Assembly (NCBI RefSeq): GCF_003287935.1
Contig: NZ_CP030287.1
Coordinates: 8,303,369-8,367,368 of the forward strand
Direction of reading: 5' to 3'
DNA from: Streptomyces sp. ICC1
GTDB lineage: Bacteria > Actinomycetota > Actinomycetes > Streptomycetales > Streptomycetaceae
Length of the DNA stretch: 64,000 nt
In this document: one piece after another, positions 1 to 36,052 of the stretch
How the letters are laid out: the number at the start of each line of letters is the position of its first letter
Position numbering within the stretch: position 1 is the first letter of the stretch
Position numbers and translations under genes: made by a program
The notes under the pieces: generated by a model
Seen by the model: the letters and a program-made list of their open reading frames with translations, nothing else
Databases searched by the model: none
What the model was told of the DNA's origin: nothing

Positions 1-5
1 GTGGA

Positions 6-38
6 TCGTCGGCAGCGTCATATGTGTATAAGAGCCAG
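6..38 (+). other. Nextera read-1 adapter remnant (synthetic)
   Basis: The stretch matches the 33-nt Nextera read-1 oligonucleotide (TCGTCGGCAGCGTC followed by the 19-nt mosaic end) at 31 of 33 positions. The mismatches are at 21 and 35. This is library-preparation DNA, not genome. Everything left of about position 39 should be treated as non-biological, and it marks an assembly end or join. Confidence 0.95.
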
Positions 39-25607: not shown

Positions 25608-26384
25608 TTGAGCAAATCCGACGACTCCTCCGCGGGTCCCCGTCGCCGTGCCAGACCGGTCCGGCTGCTCACGGCCGCCGTTTTCGCCCTGGCCGGCTTG
25701 ATCTTCGTCACCAGCTTCAACACCTCCAAGGGTACGAACATCCGCACGGACGCCTCGCTCCTCAAGCTGTCCGACCTGATCCACGAGCGCAGCCAGAACA
25801 ACCTGGACCTCGAGAAGAGCACCGCGACGGCCCGCGGCCAGGTCGACGCCCTGGCCGACCGGGACAACGGCAGCACCAAGGCGGAGGACGCCCGGCTCGC
25901 CGCACTGCGCGCCGCCTCGGGCACCGAGGAGATCACCGGCAAGGCCGTCACGGTCACCCTGAACGACGCGCCTCCCAACGCCACGGCCCGCATCCCCAAC
26001 GTTCCCGAGCCCCAGCCCAACGACCTGGTGATCCACCAGCAGGACCTCCAGGCCGTGGTGAACGCCCTGTGGCAGGGCGGCGCCGAGGGCATCCAGGTCA
26101 TGGACCAGCGCCTGATCTCCACCAGCGCCGTGCGCTGCGTGGGCAACACCCTGATCCTCCAGGGCCGGGTGTACTCGCCCCCGTACAAGGTGACGGCGGT
26201 CGGCGACCCGGGCGCGCTGAAGAAGGCCCTCGCGGCCTCGCCCGCGCTGCAGAACTACCAGCTGTACGTGAACGCGTACGGACTGGGCTGGAAAGTGGAC
26301 GAGCACAAGGCGCTGACACTGCCGGGGTACTCCGGCACAGTGGACCTCCACTATGCGAAGCCGCTGGAGTCCGCCACCCCGTGA
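25608..26384 (+). CDS. DUF881 exported protein
   Basis: The 258-residue protein has one N-terminal membrane segment (LLTAAVFALAGLIFVTSF, about 20-38) and an extracytoplasmic DUF881 domain with a coiled coil (about 60-95) and conserved NALWQGGAEGIQVMDQRLI. A TTG at 25608 after AAGGAGAAGG is preferred to GTG 25584, which lacks a ribosome site. Such proteins sit between crgA and class E sortase genes in Streptomyces, as here. Confidence 0.85.
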   Translation: MSKSDDSSAGPRRRARPVRLLTAAVFALAGLIFVTSFNTSKGTNIRTDASLLKLSDLIHERSQNNLDLEKSTATARGQVDALADRDNGSTKAEDARLAALRAASGTEEITGKAVTVTLNDAPPNATARIPNVPEPQPNDLVIHQQDLQAVVNALWQGGAEGIQVMDQRLISTSAVRCVGNTLILQGRVYSPPYKVTAVGDPGALKKALAASPALQNYQLYVNAYGLGWKVDEHKALTLPGYSGTVDLHYAKPLESATP

Positions 26385-26618
26385 CCGTGACGTCGACGTA
26401 CCGCGCCTGCTGGTACGGACGTTCAGCGAGGTGTGCCTGACCGCCGGCTCCCTGATCGTGCTCTTCACGGCCTACGTGATGCTGTGGACCGGGGTCAAGG
26501 CCGACCAGGCCATGGACGGCGAGATGGCCCGGATGCGCGACCGCTGGGCGGCCGTCCCCGCGGCCGCGGCCGCACCGGCCCCGCAAGCCGCCCCGGCCCC
26601 CGAAGCCGCACCGGCCCC
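26353..26618 (+). CDS. srtE: Class E sortase, N-terminal fragment
   Basis: About 88 residues remain: a basic N-terminus, one membrane helix (about 25-48, LTAGSLIVLFTAYVMLW), TGVKADQAMDGEMARM and an Ala/Pro linker. This matches the start of actinobacterial SrtE proteins, which join LAXTG surface proteins to the wall. The catalytic domain with TLxTC is missing because the sequence runs into library adapter DNA at 26619. Start is overlapped with the DUF881 end by 32 bp; position after DUF881 supports the call. Confidence 0.7.
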
Positions 26619-26779
26619 CTATACACATCTGACGCCGGCGGCGAACCACAAATTAATCGATCTAAGATATGATCACGTGGATCGGGTGCAGGAACACGTC
26701 ATTTTTGTTTTATCAAGCAGAAGCGGGCAACGAAGTAAATGCGTAGTCTGGGGGGCCCGGAGGTGGGAATAGAGGACAG
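26619..26779. other. Illumina adapter concatemer (synthetic, non-genomic)
   Basis: Five library elements are recognisable in order. TATACACATCTGACGC with a degraded GCCGACGA (26620-26644) is the read-1 adapter complement. The region 26677-26703 resembles the P5 complement. CAAGCAGAAG then CGGGCAACGA (26714-26733) is P7, followed by an 8-nt index-like spacer. GTCTGGGGGGCCCGG (26746-26760) corresponds to the read-2 primer part and 26761-26779 to the 19-nt mosaic end. No coding frame crosses it sensibly. It joins a truncated sortase gene to an unrelated locus. Confidence 0.95.
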
Positions 26780-26796
26780 GCCCAACTGGGGCCTGT

Positions 26797-26975
26797 GGGG
26801 GGGCAGAGCCCGCTCTGGCCCGTGGGGAGGCAGAGCCCGCTCCAGCCCGTCCGGCGTTTGAGGACCGGGGTCCGGGGCGGAGCCCCGGGGCCTCGGGCGC
26901 AGCCCGGGCCCGGCGGGTCCGGGCTGCGCCCGGGGAACGGGGGAAGGGCGGGGAGGGGACCTGCCCCGCAGGGGT
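26797..26975. repeat. GC-rich Streptomyces-type dispersed intergenic repeat
   Basis: The stretch contains a direct repeat GGCAGAGCCCGCTC (26802 and 26829), the phrase CAGCCCGTCCGGCGTTTGAG (26844-26863) that recurs between genes in many Streptomyces genomes (from memory), and a 13-bp hairpin (GGGCGCAGCCCGG, 26895-26907, with 26919-26931). No credible gene is present. It occupies the place where ftsI should follow ftsL, so the assembly may have jumped here through the repeat. Confidence 0.55.
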
Positions 26976-26988
26976 GCGTGTCACGGCG

Positions 26989-27498
26989 TCACCGTCCAGG
27001 GGTCTGGGAGGGCTGGGGCGCTCCGGCCGGTGCCGGCGGCGCAGCGGGGGTGGCCGATCCCGAAGGGGCCGGCGCCGGGGAGCCGGCCGGGCTGGGTACG
27101 GCTCCGGCCGGTGCGGACGAGGCCGGCGGAGCGGACGGCGGGGGCGGCTCCGCCGCGGGGGACGCGGCGCCGGCGACCTTGCCGTCCGGGCCGATGAAGA
27201 CCGGGCTGCCCCCGGGCACCAGGCCCAGCTCGTGCGCCCGCCGCTGCAGCGCGTCCGGCGCCGAGTAGCCGTCCACGTCCCGCTGCAGCGCCTGCTCCTC
27301 GTCCGTGAGCACGGTGGTCTCCTTGCGCAGCTTGCTCAGCTGGAAGGAGCCCTGGTTCAGTGCCGAGTTCAGCAGCAGCAGGCTGATCAGCCCGCCGCCG
27401 AGCAGCGCGACCACCAGCAGGACGAACGGCGTGCGCGCCGCCTGTCCGGCCGGGCTCCCGGCCAGGACCCGCCCGAAGCGTCCCCCGCGTGGACTCAC
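26989..27498 (-). CDS. ftsL: Cell division protein FtsL
   Basis: The 169-residue protein has a short cytoplasmic N-terminus, one membrane helix (about 24-46, [21 protein letters not shown]), and a coiled-coil-like extracytoplasmic segment (about 50-95) including [18 protein letters not shown]. The C-terminal half is a Pro/Ala/Ser tail. GTG at 27498 overlaps the rsmH stop (GTGA). FtsL bridges FtsQ/DivIC and FtsW/FtsI at the septum. The ftsI gene expected next is absent. Confidence 0.85.
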
Positions 27499-28454
27499 AG
27501 CCGCGCCTCCCGGATCCGTTCCACCCCGCGGAAGCGGGCCGGCGCGGCACGCCGGTTCTCCGCGATCTCCTCCTCCGTCGGCAGTTCCGCGCCGCGCGTG
27601 AGGAGCTTCAGCTTCGGCTGGTACTTCTCCGGTACGACCGGCAGCCCGGGCGGGGCCGTGTTGGCCGCGCCGGCCGCGAAGACCTGCTTGACGAGGCGGT
27701 CCTCCAGCGAGTGGTAGGAGAGCACCGCGATCCGCCCGCCGACCGCGATCCGGTCCACCGCGGCCGGGATGGCCCGCTCCAGTCCGGACAGCTCGCCGTT
27801 GACCTCGATGCGCAGCGCCTGGAAGGTGCGCTTGGCGGGGTTGCCGCCGGTCCGCTTCGCCGCCTGCGGGAGGGAGTCGCGGATCAGTTCGACCAGGCGC
27901 GCGCTGTTGGTGAAGGGGTTTTTGTCCCGCTCGCGCACGACGGCGGACACGATCCGCTTGGCCTGCTTCTCCTCGCCGTACTGGCGCAGGATGCGGACCA
28001 GCTCGCCGGGCGCGTAGGTGTTGAGCACCTCGGCCGCGCTGATGCCGGTCGTCTGGTCCATCCGCATGTCCAGCGGCGCGTCCTGCGCGTAGGCGAAGCC
28101 GCGGTCGGCCTCGTCCAACTGCATGGAGGAGACGCCGAGGTCGAAGAGGATGCCCTGGACGGCGGGGATGCGCAGGCCGTCCAGTACGTCGGCCAGGTCC
28201 GCGTAGATGGCGTGGACGAGGGTGGCCCGGTCGCCGAAGGGCGCCAGGCGCTCCCCGGAGAGGCGCAGGGCCTCCTTGTCGCGGTCCAGGCCGATCAGGT
28301 GGGCCTCGGGGAACCGGGTCAGCAGGGCCTCGCTGTGGCCGCCGAGGCCGAGGGTGCAGTCGACGACGACGGCCCCGGGCCTCTCCAGTGCCGGGGCCAA
28401 CAGGTCCAGGCACCGCTGGAGCATCACCGGGACGTGTCGGGACTCGCTAGTCAA
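27495..28454 (-). CDS. rsmH: 16S rRNA (cytosine-1402-N4)-methyltransferase RsmH
   Basis: The 319-residue methyltransferase has [13 protein letters not shown] at the start, SAM-binding [13 protein letters not shown] (about residue 37) and [11 protein letters not shown] (about 55), [19 protein letters not shown] (about 104-122) and [11 protein letters not shown] near the C-terminus. Length is normal. The TTG at 28454 follows GAGAGGG. It is the first gene of the division and cell wall (dcw) cluster and is translationally coupled to ftsL. The 315 bp upstream hold no gene and presumably the divergent promoters. Confidence 0.95.
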
Positions 28455-28768
28455 AGCGCCCTCTCAGATAACGGCGCGGCAGGCATACGCCGCGCCGCGC
28501 ACGCGGAGTCTTACCAAAGTGGCCGGGCGGCCGCTTTCGGGCCGGGCTCCGGCCGGTTTCGCGTCACTTTAGTGCAACGGTCGCCGCGGTCAACGAACCG
28601 CCCCGCGCGCCGTGCGCCGCTCTCCCGACGAACCGGCGAACGCCCCGAATCACCCGGATGGGCGCCTGCCCCTCACCCCTGTGGGTTAGCTCACAACAAG
28701 GCGTCGTGACCTTCTTTGTCCACCCTCACTCAATGCCCGGACGTGCTGTGACCACTAACGTCGTACCC
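28455..28768. promoter_or_regulatory. Intergenic promoter region between rsmH and carbonic anhydrase
   Basis: No gene is seen in this 314-bp region between divergent genes. It must hold the dcw promoter on the minus strand and the carbonic anhydrase promoter on the plus strand. I see no confident -35/-10 pair. CACCGGATGG-type and GTGACC repeats are present but unremarkable. Confidence 0.4.
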
Positions 28769-29320
28769 ATGACGACTTCCGTACCCGTGCCCGCCGAGTC
28801 CGCCGTCAAGGTCACCGGCGACCGTTCCGTCACCGACCGGCTGGTGGCATCGAACCGCGACTACGCCGCGGAATTCACCGATCCCGGCATGGACGCCCGC
28901 CCCGTCCTCCACGTGGCCGTCGTGGCCTGTATGGACGCCCGCCTCGACCTGCACGCCGCCCTCGGCCTGGAGCTTGGTGACTGTCACACGATCCGCAACG
29001 CCGGCGGCGTGGTCACCGACGACACCATCCGCTCCCTCACCATCAGCCAGCGGGCGCTGGGCACCCGCACGGTGATACTCATCCACCACACCGGCTGTGG
29101 CCTCGAAAGCCTGACCGAGGACTTCCGCCACGAGCTGGAGGACGAGGTCGGGCAGCGCCCCGCCTGGGCCGTCGAGGCCTTCCGGGACGTGGACCAGGAC
29201 GTCCGCCAGTCCATGCAGCGGGTCCGCACGAACCCCTTCCTCCCCCACAAGGACGATGTGCGAGGCTTCGTCTTCGACGTGCACACCGGGCTCCTGAGGG
29301 AGATCGATCCCACCTCGTGA
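28769..29320 (+). CDS. Beta-class carbonic anhydrase-like protein
   Basis: The 183-residue protein has the beta-carbonic anhydrase zinc and dyad motifs: VACMDARLDLHAALGL (Cys, Asp-Arg dyad, about residues 54-70) and IHHTGCGLES (His and Cys zinc ligands, about 109-118). It is at the short end of the family, like the subset found beside moxR in Streptomyces. ATG at 28769 is the best start. Its role is bicarbonate/CO2 interconversion if active. Confidence 0.88.
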   Translation: MTTSVPVPAESAVKVTGDRSVTDRLVASNRDYAAEFTDPGMDARPVLHVAVVACMDARLDLHAALGLELGDCHTIRNAGGVVTDDTIRSLTISQRALGTRTVILIHHTGCGLESLTEDFRHELEDEVGQRPAWAVEAFRDVDQDVRQSMQRVRTNPFLPHKDDVRGFVFDVHTGLLREIDPTS

Positions 29321-29476
29321 GTGACACGGGACCGCAACGCCGTCAAGAATGCGGGGAGACGTCACCCGGAGGACCTCCGGGCCGGTGTCCGCACTCTCGC
29401 TTTTCTGAGGTGTTTCGGGGTGGGCCGGTCCGTGCCATGCGCGCGTCGGCCCTGGGATTGGGTCGAGGAGAACCAG

Positions 29477-30486
<1,010 letters not shown>

Positions 30487-30487
<1 letters not shown>

Positions 30488-31899
30488 TGAGCGCCGGTGC
30501 CCCGCACGGCGCCGGCGGCCCGGACGCGCGGGAAGGCGGCGGGTTCCGCGCGTCGCTGGCCGGGCTGACCACCCGCGGCCGCTCCTTCCTGGCCGCCGGG
30601 GTCGCGGCCGCGCTGTGCGCGTACGTCCTGGGCCAGTCGGAGCTGCTCCGGGTCGGCCTGCTGCTCGCCGTACTGCCGCTGATCTGTGTCCTGGCCCTGC
30701 ACCGCACCCGCCACCGGGTCTCCGGCAGCCGCCGGCTGAACCCGATGCGGGTGCCCGCCGGTGCCGAGGCCCGGGTGCAGCTGCGCGTGGACAACACCTC
30801 CCGGATGCCCACCGGCCTGCTGATGCTCCAGGACCGGGTGCCCTACGTGCTCGGCCCGCGGCCCCGCTTCGTCCTGGACCGGGTGGAGCCGGGCGGCCGC
30901 CGCGAGGTGTCCTACCGGGTCCGCTCCGACCTGCGCGGGTGCTATCCGCTGGGCCCCCTGCAACTGCGCCTCTCCGACCCCTTCGGGCTGGTCGAGCTGA
31001 CCCGCTCCTTCTCCGCCTACGACACCCTCACGGTCATCCCGCGCACCGAGGCGCTGCCGGTGGTCCGCTTCACCGGCGAGTCCTCCGGCTACGGCGACGG
31101 CAGCCGCCGCTCGCTGGCCCTGGCCGGCGAGGACGACGTGATCCCGCGCGGCTACCGGCGCGGCGACGACCTGCGCCGGGTGCACTGGCGCTCCACGGCC
31201 CGCTACGGCGAGCTGATGGTGCGCCGCGAGGAGCAGCCGCAGCGCAGCCGGGCCACCGTGCTGCTGGACACCCGGCGCCTCGCCTTCGAGGGCGCCGGCC
31301 CCGACTCGGCCTTCGAGTGGGCCGTCTCGGGCACCGCTTCGGCCCTGGTGCACCTGTTGGAGCAGGGCTTCTCGGTGCGGCTGCTGACCGACACCGGGGA
31401 CTGCGTGCCCCGCGAGGGCGGCGGCTTCACCTCCGGCGGGCAGGAGTCCGCGGAGGCCGCGGGGCTGATGATGGACACCCTCGCGGTGGTCTCCCACTCC
31501 GACGGCGCCGGGCTGTCCCGCGCGTACGACGCGGTCCGGGGCAGCGGGACGGGCAGCGGTTTCGGCGGAGCCGGCGGTGACGGGCTCCTCATCGCCTTCT
31601 TCGGAGACCTGGACGACGTACAGACGGAACTGGCGGCCAAGATGTGCCGCCGCAGCGGAGGGGCCGTGGCGTTCGTACTGGACTCCGCGGACTGGTCCGG
31701 GCGGCCGCCCGGGCTGGCCTCAGTGATGGCGCAGGGGCTGCCTCCGCTCCAGGAGCGCCTCGGCAGGCTGCGGGACGCGGGCTGGACCGCGCTGGCCGCC
31801 CCGCCCGGGGTGGCCTTCGGGGAGCTGTGGCGCCAGGCCGGCCACGCCCCGATCGGGACGGGCGGCGGTTCGGGTTCGGCGGGGGGCTGGGGAGGTAGC
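30487..31899 (+). CDS. DUF58 membrane protein (3' end cut by adapter)
   Basis: The 471 residues present include two N-terminal membrane helices (about 30-70), a beta-rich middle and the DUF58 core motif RGYRRGDDLRRVHWRSTARYGELMVRR (about 218-244), followed by a VWA-like region. The sequence is near full length for the family when it meets the Nextera adapter at 31900. The open frame continues for another 1200 codons but in a non-coding frame of the pullulanase gene; that 1673-codon reading is spurious. Confidence 0.88.
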
Positions 31900-31932
31900 T
31901 CGTCGGCAGCGTCAGAGGTGTATAAGAGCCAG
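31900..31932 (+). other. Nextera read-1 adapter remnant (synthetic)
   Basis: TCGTCGGCAGCGTC followed by a mosaic end with two mismatches (31917 and 31929) matches the 33-nt Nextera read-1 oligo. It separates the DUF58 gene from a pullulanase fragment read in a different frame, so it is a chimeric join. Confidence 0.95.
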
Positions 31933-31933
31933 G

Positions 31934-35425
<3,492 letters not shown>

Positions 35426-35494
35426 GCCGGGGCCGGGGTGGTCCGCACCAGGACGGGGCGCGGGTGCCGGTGGGGGTGCCGGCACGGGTGCGCG

Positions 35495-36052
35495 TCAGAC
35501 GAGCGTGAGCTGGTCGAGCCGCTTCTCCAGCAGGATCACCCCGTACACCTGCCCGTCCTTGCCCACCTTGTGGGGGAACTCCCCGACCACCCGGTAGCCC
35601 GCGCCCTGGTAGTACGCGAGCAGCCGGGGGTTGGTGGAGACGCAGTCCAGCCGCGCCCGTTCGCGGCCGGTCCTGGCGATGCGCCGCTCGGCATGTTCGA
35701 GCAGCCGCCGGCCGGCCCCGACGGGCGCGGCCTCGCGTTCGACCATCAGACGGTGCACGTAGCCGGCGACGGGGGGCTGGACGCCCCAGGCCTCCTCGTC
35801 GGACCACCACAGCTCGTAGGCCCCGACGGCGTGCCCGTCGCCGTCGGAGGCCAGCCAGACCTCGCCCTCGCGCATGATCGCCCGGAAGTGCGCGGCGTCC
35901 TTCTCCCCGGGCTTCCACTGCTCGATGCCCTGCCCGCGCATCCAGCGGGCGGCCTGGTCGTACAGCGCCACGAGCGTGCCCGTGTCCTTCTCCCCGGCCG
36001 TCCGGAACAAGATCCCGTCGTCAATGATCACGCGGGCATTATTGCGCGCCAT
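35495..36052 (-). CDS. GNAT acetyltransferase
   Basis: The protein of about 185 residues has a GNAT fold: LFRTAGEKDTGTLVALYDQAARW at the start, MVEREAAPVGAGRRLLEHAE (acetyl-CoA loop, about residue 120) and STNPRLLAYYQGAGYRVVGE (motif B, about 150). The start is uncertain: ATG 36052 or GTG 36031, neither with a ribosome site, while homologues start near IIDDGILFR. It is convergent with the pullulanase gene. The substrate is unknown. Confidence 0.8.
   Translation of the reverse strand: MARNNARVIIDDGILFRTAGEKDTGTLVALYDQAARWMRGQGIEQWKPGEKDAAHFRAIMREGEVWLASDGDGHAVGAYELWWSDEEAWGVQPPVAGYVHRLMVEREAAPVGAGRRLLEHAERRIARTGRERARLDCVSTNPRLLAYYQGAGYRVVGEFPHKVGKDGQVYGVILLEKRLDQLTLV

What the first reader, a model, noticed from the sequence alone, without database searches (positions are those of the whole stretch)
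26619..26779. Embedded Illumina/Nextera adapter concatemer
In order, the read-1 adapter complement, a P5-like complement, P7, an index-like 8-mer, the read-2 primer part and a mosaic end are recognisable, at roughly 60-95 percent identity per element. The sequence therefore contains library-preparation DNA, and the join between the class E sortase gene and the ftsL/rsmH locus is not natural. Any system inferred across this point would be false.
Basis: partly seen in the sequence, partly recalled or inferred. Interest (0 to 1): 0.85.

Follow-up and report, generated by a model that had tools for sequence, protein, structure and literature searches.

The report
Sequencing adapter scar joining two contigs
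A short stretch in this bacterial genome is leftover DNA-sequencing adapter sitting where two unrelated assembly pieces were stuck end to end, so the genes on its two sides are not real neighbours; it is an ordinary technical artefact.

Summary
Window 26620-26779 contains degraded Illumina Nextera adapters: reverse-complemented read-1 adapter (22/25 identical), then P7 + 8-base index + read-2 adapter with mosaic end (46 of 56 fixed bases). Each beats all 2000 shuffles. The claimed P5 complement alone is at chance level.

It is one scar of many. The assembly is a single 9.03-Mb sequence with 162 near-copies of the 19-base Nextera mosaic end (up to 3 mismatches) against 1 in the reversed control. 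Two more lie in this window: 1-38, and 31895-31932, where a DUF58 gene is fused to a pullulanase gene. Readable sites point to one index pair, Nextera 706/504.

The join is false. In 11 of 11 relatives with both marker genes on one contig, they lie 1.83-2.35 Mb apart. The missing part of the sortase gene lies at 0.70 Mb of the same sequence. ftsI, which overlaps ftsL in both relatives read, lies headless at 5.04 Mb, right after another mosaic end.

Best reading: Illumina contigs with adapter-bearing ends were laid end to end. Adapter contamination at contig ends is published (PMC11536531). Not biology. "Concatemer" is slightly wrong: one contig's tail abuts another's head.

The parts
1..38 (+). 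Nextera read-1 adapter (6-38) after the last 5 bases of the i5 index (1-5), heading the piece that follows
   Evidence: 31/33 over the read-1 adapter, 35/38 with the index end; not part of the given finding
26353..26619 (+). 5' part of a sortase-like gene, cut by the adapter (mechanical ORF 26353-26772 runs into it)
Evidence: 26404-26619 matches residues 4-71 of relative G012's sortase next to DUF881, 59% identical; no Pfam match of its own; the C-terminal part lies at G000:C1:700829-701332.
26620..26644 (-). Nextera read-1 adapter, reverse complement: tail of the left piece
   Evidence: 22/25 identical, 0 of 2000 shuffles reach the score
26645..26713 (.). Noise between the two adapters: expected place of i5 + P5 complement (not recognisable above chance), then a T-rich run before P7
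   Evidence: P5 complement reached by 1231 of 2000 shuffles; T-runs also precede P7 in L032, L047, L048
26714..26737 (+). P7: head of the right piece
   Evidence: 18/20 identical over 26714-26733
26738..26745 (+). i7 index AATGCGTA, degraded Nextera 706 (CATGCCTA), 6/8
   Evidence: CATGCCTA exact at 7 of 22 read-2-type sites of the genome, within 2 mismatches at 12 of 22; name from PMC8225968
26746..26779 (+). Nextera read-2 adapter + mosaic end, after which the right piece begins
   Evidence: 27/33 identical
26780..31894 (.). Piece of about 5.1 kb: ftsL-like (-), rsmH (-), carbonic anhydrase (+), MoxR-type ATPase (+), DUF58 (+)
   Evidence: Pfam matches for rsmH, carbonic anhydrase, ATPase and DUF58; ftsL has no Pfam match and is named from its place and likeness in relatives; bounded by adapters on both sides
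31895..31932 (+). Nextera read-1 adapter (31900-31932) after the last 5 bases of the i5 index, heading the next piece; it fuses DUF58 to a pullulanase gene in the false 1673-aa ORF 30487-35508
   Evidence: 31/33 over the read-1 adapter, 35/38 with the index end; DUF58 before, pullulanase domains after in another frame

Best explanation
This is an assembly artefact. Short Nextera fragments were read through into the adapters; reads whose adapter carried two or more errors escaped trimming, so contigs ended in degraded adapter. Later the contigs were laid end to end into one 9.03-Mb pseudo-chromosome. At 26620-26779 the tail adapter of one contig (insert, read-1 complement, noise) meets the head adapter of the next (T-run, P7, index, read-2, mosaic end, insert). 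Shown: the adapters, the common index, the false adjacency, the displaced continuations. Inferred: the trimming failure and the way the contigs were joined. The confidence given is for adapter DNA at a false join; for plain end-to-end laying, rather than another way of joining, I would say about 0.8.
For: Adapter alignment. 162 mosaic-end near-copies against 1 control in G000. At up to 2 mismatches 9 of 41 genomes have matches; G000 has 102, and the 32 relatives without any include all 7 that come as one contig. Readable indexes fit 706/504 best. DUF881 and rsmH are 1.83-2.35 Mb apart in 11 of 11 relatives with both on one contig, and on different contigs in the other 23 of 34. Sortase C-part at 0.70 Mb; ftsI at 5.04 Mb right after a mosaic end. 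In a public collection 80 of 85 listed matches lie within 60 bases of an end of the held stretch. Distances between scars shrink along the sequence (Spearman -0.74).
Against: The P5 part is not detectable here, and genome-wide only 2 copies of P7 with up to 3 mismatches are found, control 0. Many index 8-mers fit no known index within 2 mismatches (9 of 22 and 22 of 36; one of 22 fits 701 better). Distances between scars do not fall strictly: in the window about 26.6, 5.1 and at least 32 kb. The break before the sortase part at 0.70 Mb shows no adapter by eye. No reads were available. The ftsL-like gene is followed by about 200 bases that are not ftsI before the adapter begins, unexplained.
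Confidence: 0.98

Rival explanations
1. A chimeric library molecule: two fragments ligated or PCR-joined through adapters were sequenced, and the assembler followed that read across.
For: The block contains adapter on both sides of a short middle part.
Against: The order insert - read-1 complement ... P7 - read-2 - insert needs library ends inside one molecule, which a normal library molecule does not have. Single head adapters straight after a bare piece end also occur (window 31895-31932). 87 adapter-marked places in one genome are many for rare chimeras.
Confidence: 0.05
2. The assembler or a scaffolder itself joined contigs by overlap through shared adapter sequence, rather than by later concatenation.
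For: Adapter copies sit at the joins, and shared adapter words can mislead an overlap assembler.
Against: Tail and head adapters are reverse complements or different oligos, so they share no overlap in the join orientation; here the tail carries the read-1 part and the head P7/read-2. The shrinking spacing of scars fits contigs laid roughly by size.
Confidence: 0.15
3. A natural insertion (mobile element remnant) that resembles the adapters by chance; the mosaic end derives from the Tn5/IS50 end.
For: The Nextera mosaic end is a Tn5-derived transposon end (recalled), so the end alone could in principle be natural.
Against: P7 and the read-2 tail are synthetic and score above every shuffle. The same library index recurs at other sites. 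0 copies at up to 2 mismatches in 7 of 7 single-contig relatives. The flanks' continuations lie elsewhere.
Confidence: 0.005

Closest known systems
Illumina adapter contamination of microbial assemblies (Moeller et al. 2024, BMC Genomics, PMC11536531)
   Same: Adapter carried into assemblies of isolates and MAGs, concentrated at contig ends, although the source studies reported cleaning reads (parts 1 and 2 of 3 of the text read).
   Different: They counted exact 12-base TruSeq adapters. Here the adapter is Nextera, with 2-3 mismatches per 19 bases at nearly every site, and lies inside a single sequence because contigs were joined across it.
PhiX contamination of isolate genomes (PMC4511556; search listing with start of abstract only)
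   Same: Sequencing reagent DNA left in isolate genomes.
   Different: PhiX is a control genome; here it is library adapter and marks false joins.

Membership tests
Illumina Nextera library adapter (read-through form) | Read-1 adapter complement directly after the insert | tested here: met
   26620-26644, 22/25, 0 of 2000 shuffles
Illumina Nextera library adapter (read-through form) | P5 complement downstream of the read-1 part | tested here: inconclusive
   Score 14, reached by 1231 of 2000 shuffles; a P5 with 4 mismatches in 29 is present at another scar of the genome, L233
Illumina Nextera library adapter (read-through form) | P7, 8-base index and read-2 adapter in order and spacing | tested here: met
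   26714-26779, composite score 56 against shuffle maximum 32
Illumina Nextera library adapter (read-through form) | One library index common to the copies | tested here: met
   Of 22 read-2-type sites 7 exact and 12 within 2 mismatches to 706, 1 fits 701, 9 fit none; of 36 read-1-type sites 1 exact and 14 within 2 mismatches to 504, 22 fit none; 706 and 504 have the highest summed fit of the 12 and 9 indexes tried
Assembly misjoin | Flanks not adjacent in relatives | tested here: met
   0 of 34 relatives with both genes have them adjacent in the assembly; 11 of 11 on one contig are 1.83-2.35 Mb apart, 23 are on different contigs
Assembly misjoin | Natural continuations found elsewhere in the same assembly | tested here: met
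   Sortase C-part at C1:700829-701332, 61% identical to G012's residues 62-229; ftsI, 81% identical to G024's residues 61-665, at 5.04 Mb
Assembly misjoin | Read coverage collapse and soft clipping at the block | not testable with these tools
   No reads available

The most novel reading that the evidence does not exclude
Reference databases may hold a class of falsely 'single-contig' genomes whose internal joins are marked by sub-threshold adapter scars. Here the scars show a sharp mismatch floor over the 19-base mosaic end: 0 exact and 3 with one mismatch, against 102 at up to two and 162 at up to three, as if a 90%-identity trimmer had removed everything better. Such scars pass exact-match screens and completeness checks, yet could be used to map many of the false joins.
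Probability: 0.4. Interest if true: 0.3.

Novelty: not a real feature. Interest (0 to 1): 0.1.

Why it matters
The genome is held as one 9.03-Mb contig, rated 100% complete, 1.19% contamination, so gene neighbourhoods, operons or fusions read from it across these places would be false. In this window the scars cut a sortase-like gene, part ftsL from ftsI, and make a false DUF58-pullulanase ORF of 1673 aa.

Tried and rejected
P5 complement as an independent element: rejected, at chance level.

Natural mobile element or repeat: rejected, because of the library index and P7, and because no copy at up to 2 mismatches is found in the 7 single-contig relatives.

Reference-guided scaffolding as the way the pieces were ordered: unlikely, since ftsL and ftsI, and the two sortase parts, were placed megabases apart.

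A paper for the 90% trimming threshold: searched once (22 papers, 8 listed) and read one hit by passages; it did not bear on it, so the threshold idea rests on recall.

Corrections to my own notes: an earlier count said 8 exact index matches of 22; the right count is 7. Counts that do not agree between calls: one search counts 102 places with up to 2 mismatches, while the listing shows 92 (3 with one, 89 with two) before it goes on to three; I cannot explain the other 10. The map uses these 92, merged to 87.

Full report
What was checked. The block was aligned to the Nextera oligos (printed in PMC10696879, passages seen, and in PMC8225968, passages seen). P7, an 8-base index and read-2 together give 56 against a shuffle maximum of 32. 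The P5 complement is not above chance (1231 of 2000 shuffles reach it). In a scan of the whole window the right part scores 64 and the left part 40, against tops of 34, 34 and 42 in three Markov controls and 32 in the reversed window; the left part alone would therefore not be decisive over 64 kb, but its place beside the right part is telling.

More of the same. The same scan found two more adapters in the window that score 64, at 1-38 and 31895-31932: each is a read-1 adapter (31/33) preceded by the last 5 bases of the i5 index (35/38 in all) and heads the sequence to its right. The second fuses a DUF58 gene to a pullulanase gene in another frame, within a false ORF of 1673 aa at 30487-35508. 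Weaker places (scores up to 37, at about 41881, 53941 and 11221) are within the range of the controls and I make nothing of them.

The whole genome. The window is C1:8303369-8367368 of a one-contig, 9,034,319-base assembly. It has 162 copies of the 19-base mosaic end with up to 3 mismatches; the reversed control has 1. With up to 2 mismatches it has 102, control 1; with up to 1 it has 3, control 0, and none is exact. P7 with up to 3 mismatches occurs twice, control 0. Of the 40 relatives searched, 8 have any copy of the mosaic end at up to 2 mismatches, and these 8 are assemblies of about 420 to 1140 contigs. All 43 of their minus-strand matches lie in the first 130 bases of a contig; for their plus-strand matches the contig lengths are not shown. 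The 7 relatives that come as one contig have none.

One library. Of 95 distinct mosaic-end sites read, 36 carry a full read-1 part, 22 a full read-2 part, 14 a partial one, 12 have N runs upstream and 11 are other. The 8 bases before read-2 fit Nextera 706 best of 12 indexes (124 of 176 letters, next best 73; 7 of 22 exact, 12 within 2 mismatches, one nearer to 701, 9 near none). Those before read-1 fit 504 best of 9 (171 of 288, next best 121; 1 of 36 exact, 14 within 2 mismatches, 22 near none), with many A-to-G changes, so that the commonest letters at two of the A positions are G. The block under study has AATGCGTA, 6/8 to 706. Both index oligos are printed in PMC8225968.

The join is false. 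DUF881 (left flank) and rsmH (right flank) are both found in 34 of 40 relatives. In 11 they share a contig and lie 1.83-2.35 Mb apart; in 23 they lie on different contigs. In relative G012 the gene after DUF881 is sortase-like. Its residues 4-71 match window 26404-26619 and its residues 62-229 match C1:700829-701332, where the match follows directly on an unrelated gene; that place is also the best Pfam sortase match of the genome. In relatives G012 and G024 ftsI overlaps the end of ftsL by 4 bases. In this genome ftsI (81% identical to G024's over residues 61-665) lies at 5.04 Mb, starts right after a mosaic end, and an acyl-CoA dehydrogenase-like gene stands before it (the dehydrogenase name is my reading of the sequence). 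So the natural continuations of both flanks lie at other piece ends. The ftsL name rests on likeness and place in relatives; Pfam gives no match.

How it arose (inferred). Read-through of short inserts put adapter at contig ends; the T-run before P7, also seen at L032, L047 and L048, fits reads running past the end of the molecule. The mismatch floor at two per 19 bases suggests that copies with 0-1 errors were trimmed away; that common trimmers use about 90% identity is recalled, not looked up. Tail and head adapters in this block are different oligos and share no overlap, which favours end-to-end laying of contigs over overlap assembly. The distance between scars falls along the sequence (Spearman -0.74; uniform spacing rejected, KS p about 1e-16; 87 merged places from the 92 listed), as if contigs had been laid roughly by size, though not strictly.

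Comparison with print. Adapter contamination at contig ends is described by Moeller et al. 2024 (PMC11536531; parts 1 and 2 of 3 of the text read). The listings (12 of 62 papers; 10 of 35; 6 of 75) show no title that describes internal adapter scars in a pseudo-contig; only listings were seen, so this is no claim of absence.

Verdict. It is a technical artefact of low biological interest and of practical weight for anyone using this genome's gene order.

Noticed in passing
window 1-38: Another Nextera read-1 adapter (31/33) with the end of its index: the window itself begins at a scar.
   Followed up: yes
window 31895-31932: A third adapter, inside ORF 30487-35508; DUF58 and pullulanase are falsely fused.
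   Followed up: yes
window 26780-26988: About 200 bases of very GC-rich, repeat-like, apparently non-coding DNA follow the ftsL stop codon, whereas ftsI overlaps ftsL in both relatives read. It may be a natural spacer of this species or a further join without adapter.
   Followed up: partly
L249 (G000:C1:700300-701500): The break before the sortase C-terminal part carries no adapter that I recognise by eye, so the adapter count may understate the number of false joins.
   Followed up: partly
G000 as a whole: Adapter copies show a sharp floor at two mismatches per 19 bases (0 exact, 3 with one; 102 at up to two), unlike relatives G030, G035 and G037, whose listed copies are mostly exact or one-mismatch.
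   Followed up: partly
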